Shown: piece by piece, positions 21,346 through 40,737 of the stretch
Position numbering within the stretch: position 1 is the first letter of the stretch
Layout: each line of letters starts with the position of its first letter
Assembly: GCF_900313025.1 (NCBI RefSeq)
Contig: NZ_OMPQ01000016.1
Location: forward strand, 31,843 to 95,842
Length of the DNA stretch: 64,000 nt
Direction of reading: 5' to 3'
Source of the DNA: Pseudophaeobacter sp. EL27
GTDB lineage: Bacteria; Pseudomonadota; Alphaproteobacteria; Rhodobacterales; Rhodobacteraceae
The notes under the pieces: model-generated
Database searches by the model: none
Told to the model about the DNA's origin: nothing
What the model saw: only the letters and a program-made list of their open reading frames with translations
Program-made: the position numbers and the translations under genes

Positions 21346-22545
21346 TTGGGTCTCCGTAACTTTTTTGACCGCATCGAGCCGAACTTTACCAAGGGCGGCA
21401 AGTGGGAGAAACTCTTCCCCGTCTACGAGATGGTGGAAAGCTTCCTCTACACACCTAAGACGGTCACAACCGCTGCACCACATGCGCGCTCATATGTCGA
21501 TATGAAGCGGATCATGACCTATGTGGTCATCGCAACGATCCCCTGTATCCTGTTTGGCCTCTATAACACGGGCCTGCAGGTCAACACGGCCATTGGCACC
21601 TATGGGGCCTCGGGTTGGCGCGCTGCGCTGATCGAGTTCTTTGGCATTGGCTTCAACCCGGAAAATCCGCTGGGCAATATGCTGCACGGGCTTTTGTATT
21701 TTCTGCCGATCTATATCACCACACTGGTAGTGGGTGGTATTTTTGAGGTGATCTTTGCCACCGTGCGCGGCCACGAGGTCAACGAAGGCTTCCTGGTGAC
21801 TTCGATGCTTTATGCGCTGATCGTACCTGTGAGCATTCCGCTATGGCAGGTTGGCCTTGGCATCGCCTTTGGCGTGGTTATCGGCAAAGAAGTCTTTGGC
21901 GGAACAGGCAAGAACTTCCTGAACCCCGCGCTGACCGGTCGTGCTTTCCTCTATTTTGCCTATCCGGCCTATATGTCTGGTGACAGTATCTGGACGCCTG
22001 TTGACGGTTTCTCCGGCGCCACGGCTCTGTCCGTTTCCGCCTCGGCTGGTTTTGATCAGCTGGCGGCCAACGGGATCGAGTGGATGGATGCCTTTATCGG
22101 CACGATCCAGGGCTCCTTTGGCGAGACTTCGACGCTGGCCTGTCTGATTGGCCTGGCCTTCCTGTTGATCACCAAGATTGCTAACTGGCGTCTGATCGTA
22201 GGCTGCATGGCGGGCATGGTGGGTTTCTCGCTGTTGCTCAACACCATCGGTTCCGACAGCAACCCAATGTTTGCGATGCCCTGGTATTGGCATCTGGTCA
22301 CCGGCGGTTTTGCCTTTGGCATGGTCTTTATGGTCACCGAGCCGGTATCGGCCAGCCACACCAATCTGGGCCGCTACATCTATGGTGCGCTGATTGGCTT
22401 CATGGTGGTGATGATCCGGGTGATCAACCCGGCCTTCCCCGAAGGCATGATGCTGGCCATCCTGTTCGGTAACGTCTTTGCGCCGCTGATCGATTACTTT
22501 GTCGTGCAGGCCAATATCAAACGGAGAGCGAAGCGTCATGTCTGA
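21346..22545 (+). CDS. nqrB: Na+-translocating NADH:quinone reductase subunit B
   Basis: Integral membrane subunit, 399 residues, with about ten helices; carries riboflavin and a covalent FMN and takes part in Na+ translocation. The FMN attachment motif DGFSGAT places the modified residue at Thr226. Family blocks include GFLVTSMLYALIVPVSIPLWQVGLGIAFGVVIGKEVFGGTGKNFLNPALTGRAFLYFAYP. The start is TTG 21346 (MGLRNFFDRIEPNF), as for nqrA. The end overlaps nqrC by eight bases. Confidence 0.95.
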   Translation: MGLRNFFDRIEPNFTKGGKWEKLFPVYEMVESFLYTPKTVTTAAPHARSYVDMKRIMTYVVIATIPCILFGLYNTGLQVNTAIGTYGASGWRAALIEFFGIGFNPENPLGNMLHGLLYFLPIYITTLVVGGIFEVIFATVRGHEVNEGFLVTSMLYALIVPVSIPLWQVGLGIAFGVVIGKEVFGGTGKNFLNPALTGRAFLYFAYPAYMSGDSIWTPVDGFSGATALSVSASAGFDQLAANGIEWMDAFIGTIQGSFGETSTLACLIGLAFLLITKIANWRLIVGCMAGMVGFSLLLNTIGSDSNPMFAMPWYWHLVTGGFAFGMVFMVTEPVSASHTNLGRYIYGALIGFMVVMIRVINPAFPEGMMLAILFGNVFAPLIDYFVVQANIKRRAKRHV

Positions 22546-23344
22546 GCAAACCAACAAAGGCGCACTCCAGCGCTTCCTTGAGGCCTCGCCCGATTCCACC
22601 GGCAAAACTCTCTTTGTTGCCGTCGCCCTGTGCCTCTTTGCCTCGATGATCGTATCGGCGGCAGCGGTGGCGCTGCGCCCGACGCAAGAGATCAACAAGC
22701 TGAAAGACAAGCAGATCAACATTCTGCAGGTGGCGGGTCTCTATGAACCCGGCGTCGACGTCACCGAAGCCTTCAGTGCCTCGTTTGAACCTCGGGTTCT
22801 GGAGCTGGCCACTGGCCGTTTCACTGATGAGTTTGACATTGCCACCTTTGATGATCGCGCCTCGGCGGATGATCCGGCAACCTCGATCGCTTTGGAAGAT
22901 GACCCGGCCTCGATTGGCCGTCAGTCGAAATACATGACCGTTTATCTGCTCAAGGATGATGCGGGCGCGATCGACAAGGTGATCCTGCCGCTGCATGGCT
23001 ATGGTCTGTGGTCGACGCTTTACGGTTTTATCGCCGTGGAAGAAAACGCCAATGACATCTTTGGCCTGCAGTTCTACAGCCATGCCGAGACCCCCGGTCT
23101 GGGTGCCGAGGTGGACAACCCACGTTGGAAGGCCCTGTGGAATGGGAAACGCCTGACAGATGACGCGGGCGCGCTGCAAATCACCGTGGCCAAGACCGCG
23201 CCTGCCGCTGGCAAAGAGTTCCATGTGGATGCGCTCTCCGGTGCAACCCTGACCTCGGTGGGTGTCGACAACCTGGTACGATTCTGGATGGGCGAAACCG
23301 GCTATGCACCTTTCCTTGCCAATCTCAAAGCAGGAGATATCTGA
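22538..23344 (+). CDS. nqrC: Na+-translocating NADH:quinone reductase subunit C
   Basis: Membrane-anchored periplasmic flavoprotein subunit, 268 residues. One N-terminal helix ([22 protein letters not shown]) precedes the FMN-binding domain with attachment motif DALSGAT (Thr237). The start at ATG 22538 (MSEQTNKG) is inside the end of nqrB; a longer frame lacks support. The C-terminal stop overlaps the nqrD start by one base (TGATG). Confidence 0.95.
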
Positions 23345-23996
23345 TGTCCCAGACACGTAGGGAAATGCTGCTCGACCCATTGGTCGACAACAACCCAATC
23401 ACCCTGCAGGTGCTTGGTATCTGTTCCGCCCTGGCGGTGACCTCCTCGCTCAAGGTAGCGCTGGTAATGACCATTGCGGTGACGCTGGTGACCGCGTTTT
23501 CATCGATGTTCATCTCGGTGCTGCGCAACCAGATCCCCAGCTCGATCCGGATCATTGTGCAGATGGTGATCATCGCTTCGCTGGTGATCCTGGTGGATCA
23601 GGTGCTCAAGGCCTATGCCTTTGAGATCTCTAAAACCCTGTCGGTTTTTGTTGGCCTGATCATCACCAACTGTATCGTCATGGGCCGCGCCGAAGCCTTT
23701 GCCATGAAGAACCCGCCCATGGCCTCCTTCATCGACGGCATCGGCAACGGTTTGGGCTATGGTCTGATCCTGATGCTGGTGGGTTTCTTCCGCGAACTCT
23801 TTGGCTCTGGCTCGCTGTTTGGCGTCACCATTCTGGAAACCGTGAACAACGGTGGCTGGTATGTGCCAAACGGGATGCTGTTGCTGCCGCCTTCGGCTTT
23901 TTTCATCATCGGTCTTTTGATCTGGGCTTTCCGCACCTGGAAACCCGATCAGGTGGAAGAGCGTGAACATAAAATTCAAGTTGTAGAGGCCCACTG

Positions 23997-23997
<1 letters not shown>
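23344..23997 (+). CDS. nqrD: Na+-translocating NADH:quinone reductase subunit D
   Basis: Polytopic membrane subunit, 217 residues and about six helices, paired with NqrE around an iron centre. Recognised blocks are [29 protein letters not shown] and [23 protein letters not shown], the latter holding the conserved Cys of the NITNCI-type motif. It is translationally coupled to nqrC and nqrE by one-base overlaps. Confidence 0.95.
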
Positions 23998-24605
<608 letters not shown>

Positions 24606-24618
24606 GGGGGCTGACACA

Positions 24619-25842
24619 ATGGCTACTTTTGGACTTGGCATTGTCCTCTTCACCCTGATCGTTCTGGCGCTTGTCAGCATCATCATCGCGGCCCGTTCCA
24701 AGCTGGTGTCGACCGGCAATGTGAACATCACTATTAACGGCGAAAAAACCATCTCGGTTCCTGCCGGTGGTAAACTGCTGCAGACACTTGCGGCTGAAAA
24801 GCTGTTTGTGCCTTCGGCCTGTGGCGGCGGCGGCACCTGTGCCCAGTGCCGAGTCAAGGTGCACTCCGGTGGCGGCTCGATCCTGCCGACCGAGGAAGGC
24901 CATATCACCAAGCGTGAGGCCGGCTGCGGTGACCGCCTGTCCTGTCAGGTTGCGGTCAAGCAGGACATGGAAGTGGAAGTGCCCGAAGAGGTGTTTGGCG
25001 TGAAAAAGTGGGAATGCACCGTGCGTTCCAACGAAAACGTCGCCACCTTCATCAAGGCGCTGGTGCTGGACCTGCCCGAAGGCGAGGATGTGAACTTCCG
25101 CGCGGGTGGCTACATCCAGATCGAAGCCCCGGCCCATGCGCTGAAGTACACCGATTTTGATATCGAAGAAGAGTACCGCGAAGACTGGGACCGCTTTAAC
25201 CTGTGGCAATATGAATCCGTGGTCAATGAGCCCGTTGAACGGGCCTATTCCATGGCGAACTACCCGGATGAAAAGGGCATGATCATGCTCAACGTTCGGG
25301 TGGCCTCACCGCCTCCCGGCTCGGAAGGCATCCCGGCTGGTCAGATGTCGAGCTACATCTTCAACTTGAAGCCTGGTGACAAGGTGACGATCTCTGGTCC
25401 GTTTGGTGAATTCTTTGCCCGCGAGACCGGCAAAGAGATGGTCTTTATCGGTGGTGGTGCCGGTATGGCGCCGATGCGCAGCCATATCTTTGACCAGCTC
25501 AAACGTCTGGAAAACCGCGATCGCAAGATCTCCTTCTGGTATGGGGCGCGCTCCAAGAAAGAGATGTTCTTTGTCGAGGATTTCGACACGCTGGCGGCAG
25601 AGTTTGATAACTTTGACTGGCACGTTGCCCTGTCCGACGCGATGCCCGAGGATGAATGGACCGGCTACACCGGCTTTATTCATAATGTGTTGTTTGAGGA
25701 GTTCCTCAAGAACCACCCGGCGCCAGAAGACTGCGAATTCTACATGTGTGGCCCGCCCATCATGAACCAGTCGGTGATCAACATGCTGCTCGATCTCGGT
25801 GTCGACCGTGAAGACATCATGCTGGATGATTTTGGCGGCTAA
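24619..25842 (+). CDS. nqrF: Na+-translocating NADH:quinone reductase subunit F
   Basis: NADH-oxidising entry subunit, 407 residues. One N-terminal helix anchors a 2Fe-2S ferredoxin domain with Cys68, Cys74 and Cys77 ([10 protein letters not shown]) and a fourth Cys in RLSCQV. The ferredoxin-reductase part has the FAD motif RAYSMANYP, the NADH-binding region [14 protein letters not shown] and the terminal [19 protein letters not shown]. It is the last gene of the operon and is followed by a clear terminator. Confidence 0.95.
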
Positions 25843-28501: not shown

Positions 28502-29521
28502 CTACAATCCAAAGAAATCGGGTACTTCCAGGCTGTCGCCTTGATCTGTGGCCTTGGCATAGACAAAGCTGGCCAGCGCCACATCCAGGATCCCCATGCC
28601 AAAGGGGGAATAGATCACCGGTTTGCTATCCGTAAGGGTCACTGCGCCATCAATCACCTGGGTAAGAGAGCCGCTGACAAAGTCCCGCCCCCCTGACAGG
28701 ATCTCGGCAAGATGCGGCGAGGTCTGTGCTTTGAGGCAATGATTCACATCGTCAAAGACGTTCTGTGCGGCCAGGATTTGCTGCGGGGCAAGATCGCGCA
28801 GGGATACATTGAGTACAGTTTGCCCAGGTGAAAACTGAAATGTTTCAGGTAGATACGGTGTTACCGCACTTGTGGCAAAGACCACAATCTCTGCGTCCAG
28901 GGCCTGTTCCAAACTGCCGGGTTGGGCAGCCACACCGCAGCTGTTAACGGCATGATTGGCCAGCGCTGCAGCGGCTTCGGAGTTTAGGTCGTGGCAGCAG
29001 ACCTTGCCAATTTGCCACCCGCGCGCGCAGAACTGATTCAGGATATTGCGCGAGATCAGCCCGCCCCCGACAAAGGCGACAGATTTTGCCCGGCGCCCCA
29101 GACGCGCGCAGTGATCCGCCCCCAGGACTGCCGAGGCGGCCGTGCGCATGGCGCTGATTTGTGCGCCCTCCATTACCGCAAAGGGATAGCCGGTTTCGGC
29201 GTTATTGAGGATGATCACTGCCGAGGCTCGCTCCAAACCTTTGCTGAGGTTGGCGGGGTAGCTGGCGATCCATTTGATGCCAGAAACTTGTAGATCGTCG
29301 GTGGCAATAGCGGCGGGCAGGGCGATGATGCGATTGCGTTCACTATCGGGAAACCGCAGAAAGTAGCTGTCGGGGTTGACCGTCTGGTGCTGATGATGCG
29401 CCTGGTAGGCACGCGCGACCAGTTGCTCGATTTCCTCAGCGTTGCCCTTCAGGACCTTGCGGATCGCCTGGGCCGCAATCAGCCGTAAACCGGGCTGTTC
29501 TGTATCGGTGAGATGCCCCAT
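28502..29521 (-). CDS. sbnB: SbnB-like dehydrogenase (ornithine cyclodeaminase family)
   Basis: NAD-dependent enzyme that in siderophore and antibiotic pathways oxidatively splits N-(1-amino-1-carboxyl-2-ethyl)-glutamate into 2,3-diaminopropionate and 2-oxoglutarate. The protein (339 residues from ATG 29521) has the mu-crystallin/OCD layout: GIKWIASYPANLSKGLERASAVIILNNAETGYPFAVMEGAQISAMRTAAS, the Rossmann motif VAFVGGGLISRNIL and GRDFVSGSLTQVIDG. The tetrad TGYPFAVMEG and the Arg/Thr of RTAAS are substrate contacts in the family. Its start is one base after the sbnA stop (TGACATG), so both are one operon. It appears intact. Confidence 0.82.
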   Translation of the reverse strand: MGHLTDTEQPGLRLIAAQAIRKVLKGNAEEIEQLVARAYQAHHQHQTVNPDSYFLRFPDSERNRIIALPAAIATDDLQVSGIKWIASYPANLSKGLERASAVIILNNAETGYPFAVMEGAQISAMRTAASAVLGADHCARLGRRAKSVAFVGGGLISRNILNQFCARGWQIGKVCCHDLNSEAAAALANHAVNSCGVAAQPGSLEQALDAEIVVFATSAVTPYLPETFQFSPGQTVLNVSLRDLAPQQILAAQNVFDDVNHCLKAQTSPHLAEILSGGRDFVSGSLTQVIDGAVTLTDSKPVIYSPFGMGILDVALASFVYAKATDQGDSLEVPDFFGL

Positions 29522-29522
29522 G

Positions 29523-30520
29523 TCAGTTGACCTCATTCGCTGTGGTTTCCAATTCCCGGTGGGGCTCTGATATGTTGGCTTCAAGGCTGGGGAGTGCGCC
29601 ATAAACCTCCTGTACCCAATCATCGTTATAAATCGTGTCGAGGTATTTCTCGCCACCATCCGGGGAGAGGGCGACAACCTTGCTGCCCCTTGGGAACAGA
29701 TCCGCCCGTGCCTGAACCCCAGCCAGAATTGATCCGGTTGAGCCGCCCGAAAGATACCCGTGCGTGGTCGCGAGCCAACGGCACATGCGGACCGCATTGT
29801 GTTCCGACACCATGACAGTATTGCGGATTTATCTGCTTGATAGATCTCAGGGATCCGGCTGGTGCCCAGCCCGGGGAGAAAGCGTGGACCGGCTTTGCCA
29901 CCAAAGGTGATGGATCCAGTTGAATCCACAGTAAGCACCTGCGCCGGATGGCGGGTGCCCTGAAAATAATCGAGAAACCCCATCAGGGTGCCGGTGGTCC
30001 CGGCGCCGACCACAACCCAATCCGCATCGGGATGCGCAGTGGCGATTTCAACCGCGGTGAGCCGGGTGTGGGCTGCCGGGTTGGCAGGGTTGGCATATTG
30101 GTTGGTCCAGTAAAGCGAGGGATCGGCCTGCTGCATCTGCTTGATCAGTTCGATGCGGGTCCCCAGATAGCCCCCCTGGGCATCGCGCGCGGTGACCTGG
30201 ATCACCCTGCCGCCAAAGGCGCGGATCGTCGCCACACTCTGCGCCGAGACATTTGGGTCGACAATGCTGGTAAAGCCATATCCGCGTTTTGCACAAAGTG
30301 CTGCCAGGGAAATGCCCAAATTTCCGGAAGTAGATTCAATCACCATTGCGCCGGGTTGCAACCTACCGGAGAGCTCTGCTGCTTCAATCAGGCTCAGCGC
30401 CGTTTTATGTTTGATAGAGCCGGTGGGGTTTATGGATTCGATTTTTAAAAACAAGTGCCCGTCAATCAGCCCCTCAATTGGCATAAAGAAGGCTTCTGGA
30501 AATTCTCTCCTAATGTTCAT
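29523..30520 (-). pseudogene. sbnA: SbnA-like PLP synthase, frameshifted
   Basis: PLP enzyme of the cysteine synthase family that joins O-phosphoserine and glutamate in 2,3-diaminopropionate synthesis. Start is ATG 30520 with TTGGAG five bases upstream. The PLP lysine is in NPTGSIKHKTA, the pyridoxal phosphate loop in STSGNLG and the glycine loop in GAGTTGTLMG. After SRIPEIYQADK the frame breaks; the rest (IRNTVMVSEHNAVRMCRWL...GGSTGSILAG...) continues in another frame to the stop at 29523. Adding one A to the AAA at 29828-29830 (minus-strand sense) restores the whole protein, so a single-base deletion or a sequencing error explains the break. Without correction the frame runs on into sbnB. 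Confidence 0.8.
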
Positions 30521-30606
30521 CAGAACTCCAATCAGCTTTTGCGGGTTTAGAAATCTATCATAAAGTGTAATAATTAGAAATTGCTCAGTCAATAGGGGCG
30601 CTTATT

Positions 30607-30618
30607 TGAAATATTTCA
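30607..30618. promoter_or_regulatory. Palindrome in the sbnA/PPTase divergent region
   Basis: TGAAATATTTCA, a perfect 12-bp palindrome in an AT-rich stretch between sbnA and the divergent phosphopantetheinyl transferase gene. It is placed to act as an operator for both. No regulator can be assigned. Confidence 0.35.
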
Positions 30619-30633
30619 TGATCCGGGTTTAAA

Positions 30634-31197
30634 ATGATGAGGCAAAATGTATCGCTATTTCTGTGTCCAGTTGTCGATCTTGATGAGGGATTGCTTGCAG
30701 CGCTGCTTGCTGAATTGACCCTGCAAGAGCGCCAGCGGGCGCGTCGTTTTTCCTGCAATCAGGCGCATCACTTGTTTGTTGTTGCCCATGCGGCTTTGCA
30801 CTGGGCGTTGCGGGACGCAGGTGTGCATCGCTATGACCTTTGCTGTAACCCACAGGGGAAACCCTATCTGAAGGACCACCCGGATCTGCATTTTAATCTG
30901 TCCCACACTGAGGGCCTGATTGCGGTAGCGCTGTGTTCAGGCAGACCCATGGGCGTGGATGTTGAACGGTTGGCGGACCTGCAAACCTATCAAGAGCTCG
31001 CCGCGCGTGTGATGACTCCAGCAGAATGCAGCTACATGGCGGCACAATCGACGCCGCAGGATCGGTTCAGGGGCTACGGAAAGGGGTTGCATCAGCTGCA
31101 GATTGCCGCCGCAAGCACAGGTCAGACTGCGGGCAGTGATTTTTTGATGCAAGCCGCACTCCAAGCAGCCGCCAGTGATGCGGTGAAATTCAGATAG
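30634..31197 (+). pseudogene. Sfp-type phosphopantetheinyl transferase, internally deleted
   Basis: Would load phosphopantetheine onto the carrier domains of the adjacent synthetase. The N-terminal half is good: RARRFSCNQAHHLFVVAHAALHWALR, NPQGKPYLKDHPDLHFNLSHTEGLIAVAL and MGVDVERL with the metal-binding Asp and Glu. After TPQDRF the expected WxxKEAxxKA segment is missing and the text goes straight to GKGL, then to an unrelated-looking tail. The protein is 187 residues where 220-240 are usual. Loss of the KEA glutamate and lysine should abolish activity. An in-frame deletion of about 12-15 codons fits. A functional enzyme would have to come from elsewhere in the genome. Confidence 0.65.
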
Positions 31198-31394
31198 GTC
31201 AGATAGCTCCAATTCATCCCCCTTCTGAGGGGCAAAGCCAAGCTGGCCCGGTAGAACCTTGCTCCAAGCTTTGCGACTCCAAATTGTCTCTGGTGAAACG
31301 GTCCGGAAATTTTTGTGTTGTCCTGGTCTGTGGGGTGGAAAACGGAGGGCACCCAGCGACTGGTGCAAAGGTGCCCGACGTTTTGACGCAGGGG

Positions 31395-31613
31395 TCAGCC
31401 GGCCATGGCCTTTTCTTTTTCCTTTGCCTTGATCGATTTGGCAGAGGCTTTTGCGGTATCTTTACCCGCTTTTTCTTTGCCTTTCATCTCTTTGGCCTTT
31501 GCCTTTCTTTCATCTTTCTGGGCTTTGCCCTCGGCTTTTCCTTTTGCCTTATGCTTGGCTTTAAGTTCCGCTTTCATGGGGTCTTTTTGGGCTTTGGCTT
31601 CCGCTTTTTCCAC
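31395..31613 (-). CDS. Lys/Ala-rich low-complexity basic protein, hypothetical
   Basis: A 72-residue protein made almost only of Lys, Ala, Glu, Gly and Met with a loose KAxxKA pattern (for example KAKGKAEGKAQKDERKAKAKEMKGKEKAG). Start is GTG 31613, seven bases after a GAGGAG site; an upstream ATG frame adds residues without this composition. It resembles histone H1-like or AlgP-like tails and is likely helical or disordered and nucleic-acid binding, but composition alone does not prove this. It sits isolated inside the NRPS remnant and has no visible partner. Confidence 0.5.
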   Translation of the reverse strand: MEKAEAKAQKDPMKAELKAKHKAKGKAEGKAQKDERKAKAKEMKGKEKAGKDTAKASAKSIKAKEKEKAMAG

Positions 31614-32129
31614 GTGAGGTCTCCTCAAAAAAATGTCACTCCGGATATCGGCACAGGATGAAAGCAATCATAGGAAAGCTGAAAGCAACCTATGCAAGAA
31701 CAATTCAGTATCATGATTTTTCGAACATCCACATATTGTTTCAAATCCGCAAATACAAATTAAGGTTGTGTTGATAAATGGTTTGTGGTTTCAAGTATCT
31801 GGCGAAGTCTATGCCGGTGGTTTTTCTGTAGGTTTTTGATCTGGCTCGGCTTGGCTGCCAGTCACAGAGCAGCTTGTCTGCTTGACCCGCCAATCAGGTG
31901 GGAGATTCGAAGCTTTGAAATTGGTGCGAAAGCCGCAAGGCCAATCAAAGAGCTGGTTCGTTTGAGGGGCCAAGCAGGCGATTTTATCTCTGTATTCAGG
32001 CCTTTCACAGGTTTGAAATCGACCTTTGATGGCGGGAACTGGTCACTGACTGACTGACTGAGTGATGGGCGGATGAGCGCTGCTGGGCTTGCGAAATCGA
32101 CTTCAAAAAGTGAGGAAAGGATTCGAGGG
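31614..32129. other. Intergenic stretch with a CTGA tandem repeat
   Basis: About 515 bases without a recognisable gene, between the basic protein and the FAAL remnant. The only clear structure is CTGA repeated four times at 32046-32061, flanked by inverted TCACT/AGTGA. The FAAL start at 32130 is preceded by AGGAAAGGA. I see nothing else. Confidence 0.5.
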
Positions 32130-33091
32130 ATGGTTTTCGACAAAGGCTTGATCAGGACGCTGCAAGAACGCGCAGATTCTAACGACCAGAGCGCGTTTTC
32201 TTTCCTGTCGTCGCCCTCCCAGCCAGCTGAAACACTGTCCTATCGGGGGCTGGATGCGGCGGCCAGGGTGCAGGCGCTTACTTTGCAGGCTGAGGCCAAA
32301 GACCTGGGCTACAGCCTCAGGCAGGCGCCGGTGATCATCGCACTGCCCGCCGGTTTGGCGTTTTTGCAGTGTTACTTTGGTTGCCTATACGCGGGTGCCA
32401 TTGCCGTTCCGATCAAATATCCCCAGCTGAACCGGCCGATGGATCACACCCAAAACGTTGCCGCAGATAGTGGCGCCCGGCTGGTGATTTCGACCCGTGA
32501 GATGCAGGCGCGGCTCAGCGAGGCGCTGCCGGGGCTGAGGATTCTTGCCATCGAAGATCTGCCGACCACTGCACAGGAGATCTGGCAAGACCCGGATCTG
32601 AGCGGTGCGGATATTGCGCATCTGCAATATACCTCAGGATCGACATCGGCGCCCAAAGGCGTGGCGATCTGCAACAGCGTCGGGCACAATGGATGGGGCA
32701 ACAGCCTTCGCCGGTTTTGGAACGGCAGAGGCGCGAGGATGCCCCGGCAGATCTGGCCGCGGCACAGACCCCGACCCAGGAGATTCTGGTGGAGATCTGG
32801 CAAGACCTCTTTGCGCTGGAACCCATCGGCATTCACGAGAATTTCTTTGCGCTTGGTGGGCATTCACTGTTGGCAACCCAGCTCAATGCGAGAATTGCCA
32901 GCCGGATGGGCACGGATCTCTCTCTGGCTGCGGTGCTGAAGGCCCCCAGCATCGCTGAACTGGCCGACAAGATAGACAGCGTCGCCCTGCAAGAGGCAGA
33001 TCCGCAGATCCTGGGCGGGCTGTTGAGCGAGTTGGAAGGCTTGAGCGAAGAAGAGTTACAGGCCTTGCTTGCGCAGGAGGGATCCGCATGA
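32130..33091 (+). pseudogene. Fatty-acyl-AMP ligase fused out of frame to a carrier domain (NRPS loading remnant)
   Basis: From ATG 32130 the first 180 residues are the N-terminus of a fatty-acyl-AMP ligase: PVIIALPAGLAFLQCYFGCLYAGAIAVPIKYP and the A3 motif LQYTSGSTSAPKGVAI. Directly after A3 the frame becomes nonsense and ends at 32939. In another frame, from about 32720 to 33091, a peptidyl carrier domain is complete (PTQEILVEIWQDLFALEPIGIHENFFALGGHSLLATQLNARI, attachment Ser in GGHS) followed by a short linker. So the rest of the ligase and probably one or more modules have been deleted, with loss of frame. The carrier reading frame overlaps the next gene by four bases (ATGA), showing that both were one assembly line. 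Confidence 0.75.
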
Positions 33092-36000
33092 GCGATCTGA
33101 AACTGCGGCTGCAAGACCTGACACCAGCCCAGCGGGCGCTCTTGTTGCAACGCCTGGTCAAGCGCGAGGACGCCAAGGCCCCTCTGATCGCTGATCCTTA
33201 TGATCTGTCCCTGGCGCAGGAGCGTTGGTTGTTTCAGGACCAGCTGTCACCGAAAGATCCTGCACATATCATCGTTGGTGCATTGCGGTTGCGCGGCCGC
33301 CTGAACAAGGCAGCGTTGCAGCAGGCGTTGCAACGGATCTATGACCGCCATGCACCGCTGCGGCAGAACTTTTCCAATGCAACGGGCAAGGCGCGGGTCC
33401 TGCAGCGCCAGAACCCAGTTCTGCATCTGGTTGATCTGTTTTTGGCTGATCAGGGAGGAAGCTCTGGCGATCTCTCTTTGCACCCGGCCTATGTTGCCAG
33501 TGTCCAGACTGGATTTGACCTGTCACAGGATCAATTGATCCGGATTGAACTGGGGCAGTTGGCCACGGATGATCATCTGCTGATCTTTGCCATGCACCAC
33601 ATCATTGGTGATGGCTGGTCACTGGATATCTTCCTGCGGGAGCTGGCAGCCGGGTATCAATCACTCAGTCAGCATATCGAACCTGATCTGCCAGAGCTGG
33701 CGATCAGTTACAGCGACTACGTGGCCTGGCAAAAACAGCGCCTCTCTGGGACAGTGCTGGACAAAAGCCTGTCTTATTGGCGTGACCAGCTGGCTGATGC
33801 GCCGCGACCAACCAATCTGGTTTCAGACCTTCCAGGCAGTCAGGAGGGGGAACGGGATCTGACCGGGGCAACGGTGGAAGCCTGTCTGCCCACGAGCCTG
33901 GTGGAGCAGCTGACGGCGCTTGGCCAATCGGTAGGCTGCTCATTGTACACCACGCTTTTGACCGGGTATTTTGTGCTCTTGTCGCGGCTGTCGGGTCAGG
34001 ATGATTTGGTCATCGGCACCCCGGTCAGTGGGCGGCTACGGGAGGAAGATGAACCGCTGATTGGTCTCTTTCTCAATACGCTGGCGCTGCGGGTGCGGCT
34101 GGAACCAGAGATGGACGGTACGGCCACGCTGCGGGCGGTAAACCGCGTGGTTCTGGATGGGTTGGAGCACCATGAACTGCCCTTTGATCGCGTGGTCCAA
34201 GAGGTGGCCCCAGCCCGCAACGCGCAGGATCACCCGCTGTTTGAGATGATGTTCAACTTCACCCCCAGCCCGCCACGTGATTTTCAGATGGGGGGAGTGA
34301 ACTGCAAATTTCTACCGCCGCCAAATCATAGCAGCGCCTTTTCTTCGGCGCTTTACATCAGCCAGTGGCAGGGGAGGCTGGAGCTGCGGCTGGCCTATCA
34401 ATCCGCGCGGTATTCTGCGCAGCGCATGCGGGACGTCCTGCACCAATACCAAGCGGTTCTGGCTCAGATGGTTGCAGGCACGGATCTCGCCATAGCTGAT
34501 TTTGATCTGCGCGGTGACCAGACAGCCCGGCAAAAGGAGATCCAAAGCCCTGTTGGAAAGCTCCCAGATCAGGTTCCAGTGACCCGTCAAATTGCCATCT
34601 GGGCTGAGCAGACACCAAAGGCAGTGGCGCTAGACTGGGAGGGCGGTTCACTCAATTACCAGGAGTTTGTGGCGCGGATGCAGGCCATCGCAGCCGACCT
34701 GGCCCAGAGCGGTGCAGCGCCTGGTGAAACGATCGCGATTTTTGCCCCTCGTGGCCCGGCGCAGGTCCTGGCAATGGCGGCGGTTCTGGAGTTTGGTGGC
34801 GTGTTGATGACACTTGACCCCGACCTGCCAGGGGAACGCCGTTTGGTGATGCTGGAACAGGGGCGAGTTGGGCGTATTCTATTTGGCGGCGGGCTGACCG
34901 CAACGCAATTAGACTGGCTAGAGGGGGTCGCGCTGCCCCGTCTTGAAATCTCCGAAGTTGGTTCTGAAGAGGGCGCGGACCTCTTTGCCGCAGACCGGTT
35001 TACGCCCCCCTGTGGTGCGCGTGACCCAGCTTATTTGGTTTTTACCTCCGGCTCTACCGGAACGCCCAAGGCCATTTTGGGCACGGCTGGCGGGCTGGCC
35101 CATTTCCTCAGCTGGCAGCGTGACAGGTTTGCGATAGGTCCCGGCGATCGGGCGGCGCAGTTCACGGGCTTGTCTTTTGATGTTCTGTTGCGTGATGTCT
35201 TTGCGTCTCTGGTGTCAGGTGCAACACTGGTGATCCCGCCGGTGGGGATCGGACCGGCGCAAGTAGGAGCGCTTGACTGGGTGGAGTACGCGGAAATCAC
35301 CCTGCTACACAGCGTACCCTCGATTCTGCAAAGCTGGTTGCTGAATGATGCATCAGGGGTGCAATTGGCGCAGTTGCGCCTTGCCTTCATCGCTGGCGAG
35401 CCCTTTGACGCGACATTGCTGCACCGATGGCAGCAGCGCTTTGGTCAGGGCATAAGATTGATCAACCTCTATGGGCCAAGCGAAACAACATTGGCCAAAT
35501 TTGCCTTTGAACTTGGGCCCGAAGCTTATGAAGCGGGGCAACCGGTTGGTCATGCCCTTCCGCAGACCAGGGTGATGGTTCTGACCGCAGGTGGCAAACC
35601 AGCGGCACCAGGTGAGATGGGGGAGATTGCGATCTCCACACCTTTTAGATCCTTGGGGTACTTCAACGATCCTGCACTGACAGAGGTGCGGTTTGTCTCC
35701 TGTTCCGAATTGGGCAACCCGTCGGAGGGGGAGGATAACATCGCCTATCTGACCGGTGATTTGGGCTGGCTGGATCCGAAGGGCCTGTTGCATGTGGCGG
35801 GCAGGATGGATGATCAGGTCAAAATCCGCGGCGTTCGTGTGGAGCCGGGCGAGATCGCCGCGCTGCTGGAGCAGCACCCGGCTGTTGCGGCCAGCGCGGT
35901 TGTTGCGCGGCGCACTCCCACGGGGGAGCAGGAGCTGGACGCCTATTTTGTAGCACAAGCGGGGGAAATAGCCGCTGCGCAGGCCTCCACCACTCAGATG

Positions 36001-37224
36001 CAGGCACAACTGCGCAGTTATCTGCGGGCGCGCCTGCCCTCTGCGTTGGTGCCAAATGGGCCTATGCAGCTGCCTGAGCTGCCGCTGACACCCAATCACA
36101 AATTGGATCGCCGCCGTCTGCCAGCAATCTCAGCACCACAGGAAGCTGAGGCTGGGCAAGCACCTCGCACAGCTGTAGAGGCACAGATGTTGCAGATCTG
36201 GGAAGAGGTCCTGGGGAAATCTGGCTTTGGCGTCACGGATGATTTCTTTGACATCGGTGGCCACTCGCTGCTGGCTTTGCGGCTGGTGTTGTTGATTGAA
36301 CAGCGCACAGGCGTCAAAATCCCTCTCGCCGAATTGTTCAAATCCGCCACCGTGTCCCACTTGGCGCAGGTCGCGCAGAGCGGTAGTGCTGGTGACGGAT
36401 TGGTGCCCCTTTGGCTGCGCGGTGAGGGGCCACCACTGTGGCTGGTGCATACCGGCGGTGGGATGTTGTGGAACTATCAACCCCTGGTTCAGGCGCTGGC
36501 GCCAGATTTTCCGATCTACGGGTTTGAGGCCAGAGGCCTGTTTGATGGGGCGGAGCCACAGGAGCGTATCGCTGACATGGCCGCGCTGTTCATCTCAAAT
36601 ATGCGCCGTCGCCAGCCCCATGGCCCCTATCGGTTGGCTGGACACTCGTTTGGTGGCCTTGTTGCCTGGGAAATGGCCTGTCAACTGCAGGCGGTGGGTG
36701 CCGAAGTGGCGGGGCTCTGTCTCTTTGACAGCAGCCTGACCCGCCCGGATGACGCTTGGTATGCGGGTCAAACCGATGCCGGTATTGCGGCGCGGGACCT
36801 GTCGCGTGCGGTCCAGATCTTTGCGCGTTTTACAGGCCAGACCCTGGCGCTCGACGAAGGTGATTTGGCGGATCTGCCCATAGCGGAGCAATTAGAGAGC
36901 GCCACAGCACTGATGGCTGCCAGTATTGGTTCGAAACAAGCGGCGCGGCAGATGGTGGAGGGTTTGTTGCGGATCTCAACCTGCCACCGGGCAGCGCGGT
37001 TGGCCTATAGGCCAAGGCCGCTGAGTGTTCCGGTGGTGTTGTTTCAGGCCACCGAGTCTGATCAGGGTGAGGCGGACCAGGATCTGGCGGCGGCTTGGCA
37101 GCACCTCGCCACTGGCGCCTTTGAGGCGCTGGTAATGCCGGGAGATCACGTTACCATGATGGCGCCGCCTCATGTGCAGACATTGGCCCAGACTCTGCAT
37201 CAGGCTCTTAAGCAACAGACCTGA
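33088..37224 (+). CDS. Nonribosomal peptide synthetase, C-A-PCP-TE
   Basis: A 1378-residue terminal module that adds one amino acid and releases the product. Condensation domain: residues about 40-480, motif HHIIGDG at 170-176. Adenylation domain: about 500-1020, A3 FTSGSTGTPK from 652, A5 NLYGPSETT, A8 GRMDDQVKIRGVRVEPGEI, A10 NHKLDR. Carrier: Ser1060 in IGGHSLL. Thioesterase: Ser1187 in GHSFGG, final His in PGDHVTMM. All core motifs are intact. Hand alignment to GrsA gives specificity residues D, V, R, H, F, A, L, L, A, K, which I cannot match to a known substrate. Diaminopropionate is suggested only by the nearby sbnAB genes. It overlaps the preceding carrier remnant by four bases, so the upstream donor module is now lost. 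Confidence 0.92.
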   Translation: MSDLKLRLQDLTPAQRALLLQRLVKREDAKAPLIADPYDLSLAQERWLFQDQLSPKDPAHIIVGALRLRGRLNKAALQQALQRIYDRHAPLRQNFSNATGKARVLQRQNPVLHLVDLFLADQGGSSGDLSLHPAYVASVQTGFDLSQDQLIRIELGQLATDDHLLIFAMHHIIGDGWSLDIFLRELAAGYQSLSQHIEPDLPELAISYSDYVAWQKQRLSGTVLDKSLSYWRDQLADAPRPTNLVSDLPGSQEGERDLTGATVEACLPTSLVEQLTALGQSVGCSLYTTLLTGYFVLLSRLSGQDDLVIGTPVSGRLREEDEPLIGLFLNTLALRVRLEPEMDGTATLRAVNRVVLDGLEHHELPFDRVVQEVAPARNAQDHPLFEMMFNFTPSPPRDFQMGGVNCKFLPPPNHSSAFSSALYISQWQGRLELRLAYQSARYSAQRMRDVLHQYQAVLAQMVAGTDLAIADFDLRGDQTARQKEIQSPVGKLPDQVPVTRQIAIWAEQTPKAVALDWEGGSLNYQEFVARMQAIAADLAQSGAAPGETIAIFAPRGPAQVLAMAAVLEFGGVLMTLDPDLPGERRLVMLEQGRVGRILFGGGLTATQLDWLEGVALPRLEISEVGSEEGADLFAADRFTPPCGARDPAYLVFTSGSTGTPKAILGTAGGLAHFLSWQRDRFAIGPGDRAAQFTGLSFDVLLRDVFASLVSGATLVIPPVGIGPAQVGALDWVEYAEITLLHSVPSILQSWLLNDASGVQLAQLRLAFIAGEPFDATLLHRWQQRFGQGIRLINLYGPSETTLAKFAFELGPEAYEAGQPVGHALPQTRVMVLTAGGKPAAPGEMGEIAISTPFRSLGYFNDPALTEVRFVSCSELGNPSEGEDNIAYLTGDLGWLDPKGLLHVAGRMDDQVKIRGVRVEPGEIAALLEQHPAVAASAVVARRTPTGEQELDAYFVAQAGEIAAAQASTTQMQAQLRSYLRARLPSALVPNGPMQLPELPLTPNHKLDRRRLPAISAPQEAEAGQAPRTAVEAQMLQIWEEVLGKSGFGVTDDFFDIGGHSLLALRLVLLIEQRTGVKIPLAELFKSATVSHLAQVAQSGSAGDGLVPLWLRGEGPPLWLVHTGGGMLWNYQPLVQALAPDFPIYGFEARGLFDGAEPQERIADMAALFISNMRRRQPHGPYRLAGHSFGGLVAWEMACQLQAVGAEVAGLCLFDSSLTRPDDAWYAGQTDAGIAARDLSRAVQIFARFTGQTLALDEGDLADLPIAEQLESATALMAASIGSKQAARQMVEGLLRISTCHRAARLAYRPRPLSVPVVLFQATESDQGEADQDLAAAWQHLATGAFEALVMPGDHVTMMAPPHVQTLAQTLHQALKQQT

Positions 37225-37460
37225 GGCCGTAAGTTCCATCTAGGACCGTGCCTTGTTGTACCCCGGCGCCACTTGGGTATTCCTGAACTTGCTGGATGCG
37301 CGTTTAGGGTATAGATCCAAGACTTGGTCGTGCCACGATCCCCGAGCGCTCTGGTTGGTCGGATATTTCGAAGGTTGCACAGGTTTTTACCAATCCTATG
37401 CTTGGTTTTAGCAGCAGGATGACGATGATTTGTGTAGTAAGTGATTCAAAGGACGGATTG

Positions 37461-38897
37461 ATGATTACCCCCATTCTACTCTGCGGTGGTTCCGGCACCC
37501 GGCTTTGGCCTTTGTCGCGCAAAAGCTATCCAAAACAATTTGTGCCCCTGGTGGGAGATACGACGCTGTTTCAGGCCTCAGCGCAGCGGCTGTCTGGGGC
37601 GGAGTTTGCCGCGCCAATGGTGCTGACCAATTCTGATTTCCGCTTCATCGTTACCGAGCAGCTGACAGGTGTTGGTATTGATCCTGGCGCCATCCTGATC
37701 GAGCCTGCCGGGCGCAACACCGCACCGGCGGTGCTGGCGGCGGCGTTATATTTGGCTCAAAGCGATCCCGAAGCGCTGATGCTGGTGGCGCCTTCTGACC
37801 ATGTGGTGCCCGATGATGCGGCGTTTCGCGCGGCTGTTGCCGCTGGGGCCGAGGCGGCCAACAAAGGCCAGATTGTCACCTTTGGTATCAAACCCACCCA
37901 TGCTGAAACTGGCTATGGCTATCTGGAACTCACCGGGGATCCCGGCGATTTTTCTCCGCGGGCCATTGGTCTGAAACGGTTTGTCGAGAAACCTGATGCG
38001 GCGACGGCTGAGACCATGCTTGCCTCCGGCAATTTCTTGTGGAACGCCGGGATCTTTTTATTCTCGGTCAAAACCATCCTTGCGGCCTTTGCCGCCCATG
38101 CCACGGATCTGGTGGCCCCAGTAGAGGCGGCGATCGAAGCGGGTGAAATTGATCTGGGTTTCTTCCGGCTTGACCCCACAGCCTGGGAGGCGCTGGCTGA
38201 TATTTCGATCGACTATGCGGTTATGGAGAAAGCGGACAACCTGACGGTGGTTCCCTTTGCTGCGGGCTGGTCTGATCTGGGCGGCTGGGACGCGGTCTGG
38301 CGCGAAAGCGAGGCAGATGCCACAGGCGTGGTCACCAGCGGCAATGCCACGGCGATCGACTGTCAGGACAGTTTGCTCCGCTCAGAAGATGACAGCCTGG
38401 CGGTTGTCGGCATTGGCCTGCAGGATGTGATCGCGGTGGCGATGCCGGATGCCGTGTTGGTGGCGGATGCGTCGCGCGCGCAGGATGTGAAACTGGCTGT
38501 GGCCGCCCTCAAGGAAAAAGAGGCCAAGCAGGCCACTGAATTCCCCATGGATCACCGTCCCTGGGGCTGGTTTGAAAGCCTGGCGGTAGGAGAGCGTTTC
38601 CAGGTGAAACGCATTCATGTTCATCCCGGTGCGGCACTGTCTTTGCAAAGCCACCATCACCGATCTGAACATTGGATTGTGGTCGAAGGCACCGCCAAGG
38701 TGACGGTGGATGATGAGGTAAAACTGGTGACTGAGAACCAGTCGGTTTATATTCCGCTTGGCGCGGTGCACCGGATGGAAAACCCTGGAAAACTGCCGAT
38801 GGTTTTGATCGAAGTTCAAACCGGCAGCTACCTTGGTGAGGACGACATCATCCGCTATGAGGACGTCTATGCCCGTGGCCAGGGGGCCAAAGGCTAG
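37461..38897 (+). CDS. manC: Mannose-1-phosphate guanylyltransferase / mannose-6-phosphate isomerase
   Basis: Bifunctional enzyme making GDP-mannose for surface polysaccharide. The N-terminal nucleotidyltransferase starts with LLCGGSGTRLWPLSRKSYPKQF and has FVEKPDAATAETMLASGNFLWNAGIFLF; the C-terminal cupin-type isomerase domain holds HRPWGWFESL, VKRIHVHPGAALSLQSHHHRSEHWIVVEGTA and the PLGAVHRMENPG segment. The ATG at 37461 (MITPILLCGGSG) is used; a longer frame upstream is not family-like. Length 478 residues is normal. No polysaccharide genes are adjacent apart from the distant epimerase. Confidence 0.92.
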   Translation: MITPILLCGGSGTRLWPLSRKSYPKQFVPLVGDTTLFQASAQRLSGAEFAAPMVLTNSDFRFIVTEQLTGVGIDPGAILIEPAGRNTAPAVLAAALYLAQSDPEALMLVAPSDHVVPDDAAFRAAVAAGAEAANKGQIVTFGIKPTHAETGYGYLELTGDPGDFSPRAIGLKRFVEKPDAATAETMLASGNFLWNAGIFLFSVKTILAAFAAHATDLVAPVEAAIEAGEIDLGFFRLDPTAWEALADISIDYAVMEKADNLTVVPFAAGWSDLGGWDAVWRESEADATGVVTSGNATAIDCQDSLLRSEDDSLAVVGIGLQDVIAVAMPDAVLVADASRAQDVKLAVAALKEKEAKQATEFPMDHRPWGWFESLAVGERFQVKRIHVHPGAALSLQSHHHRSEHWIVVEGTAKVTVDDEVKLVTENQSVYIPLGAVHRMENPGKLPMVLIEVQTGSYLGEDDIIRYEDVYARGQGAKG

Positions 38898-39018: not shown

Positions 39019-40737
39019 TCACCAGTCGAGAATCTCTGGCAACATGCGCCCGGTTGTCCCCGATGGCAGCCGGGTGCGGGCATAGGCAGCAATTGTGGGC
39101 GCCACATCAACGGTTTGGACCTTGCGTTGGATTGTCTGAGTGCGGATGCCCGGCCCCATAAAGAAGAGTGGAACATGCCGATCATAGGCATAGGGAGAGC
39201 CATGCTGTGAAGCCCCCGCCAATGGATTCGGGTCTTTCATGAACCAACCGGGAGAGAGAATTGGGTAGAGATCCCCGGATCGCGATGGCAGGAAATTGGC
39301 CGTAACGGCCCGTCCCAGATGGGTATCGGGCAGGTTGCCCAGTGCGATGCGCTGCTTTTCAAAAACCCAGGCCACCCCCAGCATGCCGCGCAGGGTGGTG
39401 GCAATCAGTGCCTCAGCCTCTGCCGGGTCCGCACCTGCAGCCTGCAAAAGGTTATGATTCAGATAAATCCAAGGTGAGGTATAGCTGCTGATGGGGGCAC
39501 TGATACCATGGGCCATCTTAAAACCCTGAATGGCAGGTGTTTGTTCTACCTGGTCATAATCAAACAGCTGCAACTGGGTGCGCACCCGTGCATTCATATA
39601 GGCCGGCACCTCGGTGGCGCCGTGATCAGCAGAGAGAACCACCAGGGTGTTGTCCAATCCCACCACCTGGTCCAGATGGTGGAAAAAATCAGCCAATTGC
39701 GCATCCAGCCGCTTGAGGTTGTCTTCGGCCTCCAGCGATGAAGGGCCAAAGGTATGGCCAATATAGTCGACGGAGTTCAGGCTGATTGCCAGGTAATCGG
39801 TCACCTCATCCTGGCCAAGCTGCTCCCCGGCAATCAGCGCCTTGGTAAAACTGAGGGTCAGCTCATCCGCCGCAGGTGAGGTCTCCAGAAAGGCCTGGTA
39901 ATACCCATTTGATGGATCCGGGTAGAGATGTTCGGAAAATACAATGCCCCATCCGGGATAGTCTTTTTCCCAGGCCTGGTCATCAAAATCAGCAAAACTA
40001 TAGGTGGCCTCAGGGTACAAGAGCTCCCATCCTGACCCGGCATAGCTTTCGGGCAATTGTCTGGCCGTCCAATCCTGATGCCACTGCGGATAGGTCTGGA
40101 GGTAGAAGACAGAGCTGAGAAATGTGGATTTGTCGGTGTTGTACCAATAGGCCGTGCCGGCATGACCAGTCGCGCCAATGGCGGCGCGGTCTTTCATGGA
40201 GACCCCAAAGACCTTGGCCTGCGCGCCGCGGGACAGGCGAATTTCATCACCAATCGTGGTCACCAGCAGATCCCGGGGAGAGCGACCATCCTCTGGCGGT
40301 GACTGGCTGCCATCTGGGTAAAGCAGCGGCGAATTATCGTCCTGGGTGGCAAAGTGCAGCGCATCTGAGACATCCAGCACGATGCCCTCGCTCTTTGGGT
40401 TGTCCGGGTTATGTTCAGTTCTTGGAAGCTGGGCGTCGAGAAAATTGTTGCCGATCAACCCATGTACCGCCGGGTCTGCGCCTGTTGACAGCGTTGTATG
40501 CCCGACAACTGTTTCCGTATTGGCGTGGCGATGTTCTGCGTCCCTAAACCAGGTGCCATTACTCATGAGACGCTGAAATCCGCCTTCGGTGAAACCTGTG
40601 GAGAACCGCTCCAACAGGTCAGCTCTGAGTTGGTCGACAGTAATCTGGACGATCAGTTTTGGCGGTAGTTCTCGCCCCTGGGCAGACAGTTGAGTTGATG
40701 CAAACAGCAGGCCAGAGACCAAAAGTATGAGGCGCAT
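39019..40737 (-). CDS. Secreted alkaline phosphatase-superfamily enzyme (PafA-like)
   Basis: A 572-residue exported hydrolase with signal peptide (ILLVSGLLFASTQLSA). Metal and nucleophile residues of the nucleotide pyrophosphatase/phosphodiesterase superfamily are present: QITVDQLRAD (metal Asp), NTETVVGHTTLSTGADPAVHGLIGN (nucleophile Thr), DYIGHTFGPSS (Asp/His), LSADHGATEVP (Asp-His) and a late His in YDRHVPLFF. The order matches the PafA-type broad phosphomonoesterases that release phosphate from organic phosphate. It stands alone, 153 bases after arsJ on the same strand. A Pho box was not found. Confidence 0.78.
   Translation of the reverse strand: MRLILLVSGLLFASTQLSAQGRELPPKLIVQITVDQLRADLLERFSTGFTEGGFQRLMSNGTWFRDAEHRHANTETVVGHTTLSTGADPAVHGLIGNNFLDAQLPRTEHNPDNPKSEGIVLDVSDALHFATQDDNSPLLYPDGSQSPPEDGRSPRDLLVTTIGDEIRLSRGAQAKVFGVSMKDRAAIGATGHAGTAYWYNTDKSTFLSSVFYLQTYPQWHQDWTARQLPESYAGSGWELLYPEATYSFADFDDQAWEKDYPGWGIVFSEHLYPDPSNGYYQAFLETSPAADELTLSFTKALIAGEQLGQDEVTDYLAISLNSVDYIGHTFGPSSLEAEDNLKRLDAQLADFFHHLDQVVGLDNTLVVLSADHGATEVPAYMNARVRTQLQLFDYDQVEQTPAIQGFKMAHGISAPISSYTSPWIYLNHNLLQAAGADPAEAEALIATTLRGMLGVAWVFEKQRIALGNLPDTHLGRAVTANFLPSRSGDLYPILSPGWFMKDPNPLAGASQHGSPYAYDRHVPLFFMGPGIRTQTIQRKVQTVDVAPTIAAYARTRLPSGTTGRMLPEILDW

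What the first reader, a model, noticed from the sequence alone, without database searches (positions are those of the whole stretch)
28502..37224. Decaying cluster for a diaminopropionate-containing lipopeptide
sbnAB make 2,3-diaminopropionate, a fatty-acyl-AMP ligase would load a fatty acid, and a C-A-PCP-TE module would finish the chain. The combination is not one I can match to a known product. Three of five genes are damaged, so an intact version may exist in a related strain and encode an undescribed compound.
Basis: inference. Interest (0 to 1): 0.7.

Follow-up and report, generated by a model that had tools for sequence, protein, structure and literature searches.

The report
Deletion remnant of lipopeptide-polyketide gene cluster
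A marine Roseobacter-group bacterium carries the two ends of a 31-33 kb gene cluster for an apparently undescribed lipid-peptide-polyketide compound, most of which was recently deleted here but survives complete in two sister genomes.

Summary
sbnB, a frameshifted sbnA, a 3'-truncated Sfp-type PPTase, a truncated FAAL and an open C-A-PCP-TE protein lie at 28502-37224. The decay reading is right and intact relatives exist, but the cluster is far larger than the window shows. In 2 of 12 genomes of the genus (one is Phaeobacter sp. 11ANDIMAR09) the same ends enclose 15 open genes over 31-33 kb: sbnB, sbnA, PPTase, amino acid:carrier-protein ligase, acyl-CoA dehydrogenase, ACP, 3-hydroxyacyl-CoA dehydrogenase, kinase, asparagine synthetase-like, threonine synthase-like, FAAL-ACAD-ACP, C-A-PCP, C-A-MT-PCP, KS-AT-KR-ACP and C-A-PCP-TE. 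The window lost about 7.4 kb and 15.4 kb. Its 'FAAL plus PCP' is a scar: the carrier domain is the tail of the lost polyketide synthase, out of frame with FAAL. The remnants are about as conserved as intact copies are to each other, so the losses look recent. Predicted product (inference): an unsaturated fatty acyl chain, amino acid 1, O-methyl-tyrosine, an aminomalonate-derived ketide and amino acid 3, with 2,3-diaminopropionate at 1 or 3. All parts are of known kinds. I found no description of the combination in a limited open-access search.

The parts
28502..29521 (-). sbnB, 2,3-diaminopropionate biosynthesis dehydrogenase (339 aa), intact
   Evidence: TIGR03944 383 bits, above cut-off; 85% identical to the G401 sbnB
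29523..30520 (-). sbnA, PLP-dependent Dap synthase, frame change near 29828; both pieces still readable in their own frames
   Evidence: pieces 196/231 and 68/101 identical to G401; G397 vs G401 199/231 and 67/101
30634..31068 (+). Sfp-type 4'-phosphopantetheinyl transferase, 5' part only; the end with the WSAKEA motif is deleted
   Evidence: Pfam ACPS score 22.8 is just under its cut-off of 25 in the window and 66.5 in intact G401
31066..31212 (-). Remnant (first 49 of 412 codons) of a threonine synthase-like PLP gene; right edge of deletion 1 (about 7.3-7.4 kb missing)
31395..31613 (-). Short Lys/Ala-rich open frame (about 72 aa); the DNA around it is 82% and 77% conserved in G397 and G401
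32085..32690 (+). FAAL (fatty acyl-AMP ligase) N-terminal remnant, residues 3-205 of the 1334-aa FAAL-ACAD-ACP protein
32663..32675 (.). Junction of deletion 2 (about 15.3-15.5 kb missing); both flanks align over these bases, i.e. short homology at the breakpoint
32663..33091 (+). C-terminal 142 residues of the polyketide synthase, with its ACP, in another frame than the FAAL remnant
33088..37224 (+). Open C-A-PCP-TE NRPS (1378 aa); motifs HHIIGDG, IGGHSL and GHSFG present
   Evidence: 77%, 71%, 65% identical to G397, G401, G399
39019..40737 (-). PafA-like alkaline phosphatase/phosphodiesterase; a close orthologue (74-83%) directly follows the NRPS-TE gene in the 4 other genomes that have that gene; the 7 genomes without it have none (G406 has a 48% relative)

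Best explanation
The locus is the two ends of a hybrid NRPS-PKS cluster, probably on a plasmid-like replicon, recently broken by two internal deletions (about 7.4 and 15.4 kb) and one frame change in sbnA. In the intact form, SbnA and SbnB make 2,3-diaminopropionate, and the PPTase arms the carrier domains. FAAL loads a fatty acid that a fused acyl-CoA-dehydrogenase domain desaturates. Three NRPS modules and one PKS module then add amino acid 1, an O-methylated tyrosine, a reduced ketide and amino acid 3, and TE releases the chain. The amino acid:carrier-protein ligase, ACP, acyl-CoA dehydrogenase and 3-hydroxyacyl-CoA dehydrogenase probably turn a carrier-bound amino acid (serine expected) into aminomalonyl-ACP for the PKS module. 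Shown by comparison: gene order, breakpoints, domain order and conservation. Inferred: all chemistry and substrates. In the window the product cannot be made, because nearly all of the starter protein, two NRPS modules, nearly all of the PKS and the extender cassette are gone.
For: DNA alignment to G397 and G401 is collinear except for two clean jumps: window 31069|31079 = G397 3256|10662 (31067|31082 = G401 4946|12242); window about 32670 = G397 13540|29000 and G401 13846|29168. Of 15 cluster proteins, 7 have a remnant above 50% identity in the window and 8 have none; the 17 matches of 50% or less that one search dropped are 23-36% hits to unrelated or paralogous genes. The ligase gives no match at E <= 0.001 and the MT domain none at E <= 1e-20 in the genome, and the FAAL-ACAD-ACP query finds only the short remnant at high identity. 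All 15 proteins are open frames in the same order in G397 and G401, 68-85% identical between the two; domains by Pfam and NCBIfam. MT domain: PRMT-like and 45% identical to the domain in the cryptophycin-type NRPS of Nostoc ATCC 53789 and to one on Tistrella plasmid pTM3. LynB3-OMT, a presumed Tyr O-MT, was assigned on the same arginine-MT resemblance (passages of PMC10127204). The code of that A domain is DASTVAAVC in 3 of 3 genomes read, a Tyr code by recall. The zwittermicin aminomalonyl set uses the same logic (passages of PMC6395733).
Against: The assembly is a 16-contig draft and no reads were available; the sbnA frame change could be a base error. No substrate was resolved for A domains 1 and 3, so the place of Dap is unknown. 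The role of the kinase, AsnB-like and ThrS-like genes is unknown. Aminomalonyl formation is by analogy: here the loader is aaRS-like, whereas zwittermicin uses ZmaJ, and the ligase scores well below its NCBIfam cut-off (147 vs 357 bits). The empty answer came with a warning that it has no positive control.
Confidence: 0.87

Rival explanations
1. The window holds a small, complete cluster in which sbnAB, PPTase, FAAL-PCP and NRPS-TE make a simple Dap lipopeptide, decayed by point damage only.
For: Gene content as seen in the window.
Against: The intact copies have 22-23 kb more between the same ends; the PCP is the tail of the PKS and is out of frame with FAAL.
Confidence: 0.03
2. The deletions left a reduced but working unit: sbnB, the PKS-derived ACP and the stand-alone C-A-PCP-TE still make or release something and are kept by selection.
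For: The NRPS-TE is lesion-free over 4.1 kb with its motifs present. By a crude three-sequence count the window branch shows fewer amino-acid changes per synonymous change (79/159) than the G397 branch (103/106).
Against: Equally explained by recent loss: the frameshifted sbnA tail and the other remnants are about as conserved as between intact copies. Hardly any starter protein is left, and no intact PPTase in the cluster.
Confidence: 0.07
3. The missing stretches are assembly artefacts and the genome really has the full cluster.
For: Draft genome, no reads.
Against: Only short homology is seen at junction 2 and none obvious at junction 1; the MT and the ligase were not found in the 4.55 Mb assembly rated 100% complete.
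Confidence: 0.04

Closest known systems
Intact orthologous cluster in Phaeobacter sp. 11ANDIMAR09 (NZ_LIKT01000016.1) and in the unnamed same-genus genome G397
   Same: Same gene order, same ends; NRPS-TE 71-77% identical
   Different: The window lacks 22-23 kb of it and has a manC gene between the NRPS-TE and the phosphatase
Zwittermicin A aminomalonyl-ACP genes (zmaH, zmaI, zmaJ and a shared dehydrogenase)
   Same: Carrier protein, acyl-CoA dehydrogenase and second dehydrogenase logic (passages of PMC6395733)
   Different: Here an aaRS-like amino acid:carrier-protein ligase stands in for the seryl-AMP synthetase ZmaJ; a FAAL start and an O-MT tyrosine module are present
Tyr O-methyltransferase domains inside A domains (cryptophycin NRPS CrpC, LynB3, didemnin plasmid of Tistrella)
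   Same: PRMT-like domain inside the A domain; 45% identity to the Nostoc and Tistrella domains
   Different: Different pathway context. The gene name CrpC for the L067 protein and the didemnin role of the Tistrella module are from recall and gene order; LynB3 was not compared by sequence
FAAL-ACAD-ACP loading proteins (Gloeocapsa PCC 7428 and Burkholderia stagnalis plasmids)
   Same: The homologue covers 94-98% of the protein at 36-37% identity
   Different: Other gene neighbourhoods: type I PKS in Gloeocapsa; KAS III genes in Burkholderia
Amino acid--[carrier-protein] ligase operon (Azospirillum brasilense Sp 7 plasmid)
   Same: ACP, acyl-CoA dehydrogenase and ligase side by side; ligase 28% identical
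   Different: No hydroxyacyl dehydrogenase and no NRPS/PKS annotated in the 13 kb viewed

Membership tests
2,3-diaminopropionate (SbnA/SbnB) pathway | SbnA and SbnB both present and full-length | tested here: not met
   In the window SbnB exceeds its cut-off but SbnA is frameshifted (262.8 bits vs cut-off 349.95). In the intact G401 cluster both exceed their cut-offs
FAAL-initiated lipopeptide/hybrid cluster | FAAL with a carrier domain feeding a condensation domain | tested here: met
   Met by domain order in the intact G401 copy, G397 being collinear. In the window FAAL stops at residue 205 of 1334
Hybrid NRPS-PKS assembly line | C-A-PCP modules plus KS-AT-ACP, ending in TE | tested here: met
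   Met in intact G401; the window keeps only the last NRPS module and the PKS tail
Aminomalonyl-ACP extender cassette | Amino-acid loader, dedicated ACP, acyl-CoA dehydrogenase, 3-hydroxyacyl dehydrogenase in one block | tested here: met
   Gene set met in G401 and G397, the loader by a sub-threshold family match; no remnant in the window
Aminomalonyl-ACP extender cassette | Serine is loaded and oxidised to aminomalonyl-ACP | not testable with these tools
   Needs enzyme assays
Tyrosine O-methyltransferase A domain | PRMT-like MT inside an A domain with a Tyr code | tested here: met
   the reading of the code as Tyr is recalled
Cryptophycin or didemnin pathway | Same gene set and order | tested here: not met
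   Only domain-level similarity in the stretches fetched: 23-48% for C, A, carrier, TE and PKS parts (the higher values over short carrier stretches), 45% for the MT

The most novel reading that the evidence does not exclude
The intact cluster makes an undescribed family of plasmid-encoded lipopeptide-polyketides. They would combine 2,3-diaminopropionate, O-methyl-tyrosine and a ketide unit from aminomalonyl-ACP loaded by a tRNA-synthetase-like ligase. A PafA-like phosphatase (its N-terminus looks like a signal peptide, so probably periplasmic) and a small kinase may form a phosphorylation-based protection or activation pair.
Probability: 0.35. Interest if true: 0.55.

Novelty: new member of a known kind. 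Interest (0 to 1): 0.36.

Why it matters
It gives a concrete lead in a named strain (Phaeobacter sp. 11ANDIMAR09) to a lipopeptide-polyketide for which I found no description in the open-access papers searched. It also shows a large cluster caught soon after loss, and warns that gene neighbours in a decaying cluster can be scars. Orphan hybrid clusters are common, so the general interest is moderate.

Tried and rejected
Searching viral contigs for the FAAL remnant gave nothing. The family search with the NRPS-TE protein at E <= 1e-150 (394 genomes, 393 genera, 2 candidates scored in each of the genomes listed) found only the window genome (1 of 394). MT-domain searches at E <= 1e-20 in order (390 genomes) and phylum (398 genomes, partly the same ones) found 3 matches each, at 29-45% and 32-40%; I looked at 3 of these 6 loci (G067, G710, G789), and their gene order differs. 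Plasmid searches found no close copy of the NRPS-TE: 256 of 256 matched records were below 60% identity. Near-DNA matches of the locus in plasmids were all the neighbouring manC gene in the 20 of 70 records listed. The kinase had no match in the plasmid collection. The P. leonis copy (G399) has many frame changes, but its replication gene is split and its FAD-monooxygenase has a stop too, so poor sequence is as likely as decay and I did not count it as decayed. MED193 (G400) keeps only a truncated NRPS-TE (matching from query residue 539 on) within about 3 kb of a replication initiator gene. PDB sequence searches with A domains 1 and 3 did not settle their substrates. The G399_N3 code printed is a pattern-matching artefact (it hit an earlier FD) and is disregarded.
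Full report
Observation. sbnB (28502-29521, minus) is open and full length. sbnA (29523-30520, minus) changes frame near 29828. The Sfp-type PPTase (from 30634) loses its 3' third. The FAAL (from about 32085) stops after about 200 residues. The C-A-PCP-TE protein (33088-37224, 1378 aa) is open with condensation, carrier and thioesterase motifs present.

Relatives. The window lies in G000, a 4.55 Mb draft of a Roseobacter-group genus with 12 genomes searched. At E <= 1e-60 the NRPS-TE protein matched 7 of 12 genomes, but only 5 (the window's own included) at 65% identity or more. G398 and G406 match at 28-30%, taken as other NRPSs. So 7 of 12 lack it. Three named loci correspond to G401 (Phaeobacter sp. 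11ANDIMAR09), G399 (Pseudophaeobacter leonis 306) and G400 (Roseobacter sp. MED193), by equal contig lengths.

The intact cluster. In G401 and G397 the same ends enclose 31.4 and 32.9 kb. Order: sbnB-, sbnA-, PPTase+, amino acid:carrier-protein ligase-, acyl-CoA dehydrogenase-, ACP-, 3-hydroxyacyl-CoA dehydrogenase-, kinase-, asparagine synthetase-like-, threonine synthase-like-, FAAL-ACAD-ACP+ (1334/1339 aa), C-A-PCP+ (1145/1155), C-A-MT-PCP+ (1430/1450), KS-AT-KR-ACP+ (1539/1552), C-A-PCP-TE+ (1380/1386). All 15 are open frames in both genomes and 68-85% identical between them. Domains of the G401 proteins are from Pfam and NCBIfam. The aaRS-like protein has no Pfam match and matches NF005479 'amino acid--[acyl-carrier-protein] ligase' below its cut-off (147 vs 357 bits), so that name is a family-level one.

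What happened in the window. DNA alignment is collinear with two jumps. Deletion 1 runs from inside the PPTase to inside the threonine synthase-like gene: 7.3-7.4 kb. Deletion 2 runs from inside FAAL to the last 142 codons of the PKS: 15.3-15.5 kb, with a few shared bases at the junction. FAAL and PKS tail are in different frames, so the junction does not encode a working fusion. Of 15 proteins, 7 have a remnant above 50% identity and 8 have none; 17 weaker matches (23-36%) that one search left out are other genes or other parts of the same NRPS fold. The ligase and the MT domain were not found in the rest of the genome, and the FAAL-ACAD-ACP query finds only the remnant at high identity. One search warns that an empty answer without a positive control shows little.

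Age. Each remnant is about as similar to the intact copies as these are to each other. In the order window-G401, window-G397, then G397-G401: sbnA 3' piece 68/101 and 75/101 vs 67/101; sbnA 5' piece 196/231 and 196/231 vs 199/231; PPTase piece 95/145 and 105/144 vs 106/145; FAAL piece 144/199 and 156/202 vs 149/207; PKS tail 113/142 and 118/142 vs 117/142. The PPTase piece is a little lower against G401 than the intact pair. For the NRPS-TE, dN/dS between window and G397 is 0.18, and window-specific amino-acid changes (79 with 159 synonymous codons) do not exceed G397-specific ones (103 with 106) (a crude count, since dS is about 0.9-1.4). This fits recent loss; it would also fit continued use of the NRPS-TE, which cannot be excluded.

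Likely chemistry (inference). FAAL loads a fatty acid and the fused ACAD domain probably desaturates it. Module 2's A domain reads DASTVAAVC in G401, G397 and G399, recalled as a tyrosine code. Its inserted methyltransferase resembles protein arginine methyltransferases. It is 44-45% identical to domains in the NRPS on Nostoc ATCC 53789 pNsp_c (gene order PKS, NRPS, SDR-annotated synthetase, P450, as expected of cryptophycin crpB-E, recalled), on Tistrella pTM3, and in genome G067. Cryptophycin-1 contains 3-chloro-O-methyl-D-tyrosine (passage of PMC6835634). LynB3-OMT was presumed a tyrosine O-methyltransferase for the same resemblance (passage of PMC10127204). Passages of PMC9964501 did not mention the didemnin methyltransferase domains. 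Module 1 reads DVWQVTTDD (3 of 3 copies read) and module 3 DVRHFALLA (4 of 5 copies read; the fifth, G399, is a pattern-matching artefact); I could not assign either, so Dap is placed at 1 or 3. The block ligase-ACP-ACAD-hydroxyacyl dehydrogenase parallels the zwittermicin aminomalonyl-ACP set (passages of PMC6395733). The AT has GYSIG in both intact copies in place of the usual GHSxG (the usual form is recalled). Roles of kinase, AsnB-like and ThrS-like genes are open.

Setting. The replicon carries ParA-like (window 194-1579) and ParB-like (1563-2639) genes. A Rep3-type initiator (Pfam on the G400 protein) has a 94% identical homologue, with one TGA reported inside the match, just outside the window at G000:C1:30181-31488. 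Of the 5 genomes with the NRPS-TE, the only ones searched for it, all 5 have the initiator, in G399 split over two frames. It shares a contig with the NRPS-TE gene in 4 of 5 (G000, G397, G400, G401); in G399 the two are on different contigs. The G397, G400 and G401 contigs are 280, 263 and 103 kb long. A plasmid or chromid location is therefore likely. A close orthologue (74-83%) of the PafA-like phosphatase follows the NRPS-TE gene in the other 4 genomes that have it; in the window manC lies between. The 7 genomes without the NRPS-TE have no such orthologue (G406 has a 48% relative, as does G000 as a second copy). It may therefore belong to the cluster.

Novelty. Paper searches gave no description of this cluster that I could see: Pseudophaeobacter with 'biosynthetic gene cluster' (8 papers) or 'nonribosomal peptide synthetase' (2); Roseobacter/MED193/NRPS/PKS terms (58 papers, 20 listed); aminomalonyl with Dap/FAAL (1); strain name 11ANDIMAR09 (0); carrier-protein ligase terms (3); Roseobacter/FAAL/lipopeptide terms (1). 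For most I saw only the listing and the start of the abstract. [quoted passage not shown] no aminomalonyl or Dap in the main text) and PMC4359443 (12 of 27 places shown; none on this cluster). Subscription journals are mostly not held, and supplements were not searched. Every enzyme is of a known kind, so I rate it a new member of a known kind, with moderate interest.

Noticed in passing
window 37398-38897: A manC-type mannose-1-phosphate guanylyltransferase lies between the NRPS-TE and the phosphatase in the window but not in G397, G399, G400 or G401; its best plasmid match is 86% in Phaeobacter sp. G2, suggesting insertion from another plasmid.
   Followed up: partly
window 194-2639 and G000:C1:30181-31488: ParA/ParB-like genes and, just outside the window, a homologue of a Rep3-type initiator: the window, which includes Nqr-type genes (about 21346-25842), is probably on a plasmid or chromid-like replicon.
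   Followed up: partly
L007 / L039 (Roseobacter sp. MED193): The NRPS-TE gene is cut in its A domain and lies within about 3 kb of a replication initiator gene: apparently a different way of losing the same cluster.
   Followed up: partly
window 31395-31613: Short Lys/Ala-rich open frame on the minus strand (histone H1-like composition), its DNA conserved in both intact clusters; role unknown.
   Followed up: no
L037/L038 (P. leonis 306): Many frame changes across the cluster, and a split or stop also in its replication and FAD-monooxygenase genes, so either sequence errors or wide decay.
   Followed up: partly
L069 11950-13806 (G067): An asparagine synthetase-like gene 44% identical to the cluster's sits between NRPS genes, one carrying the same PRMT-like MT, in another genus.
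   Followed up: no
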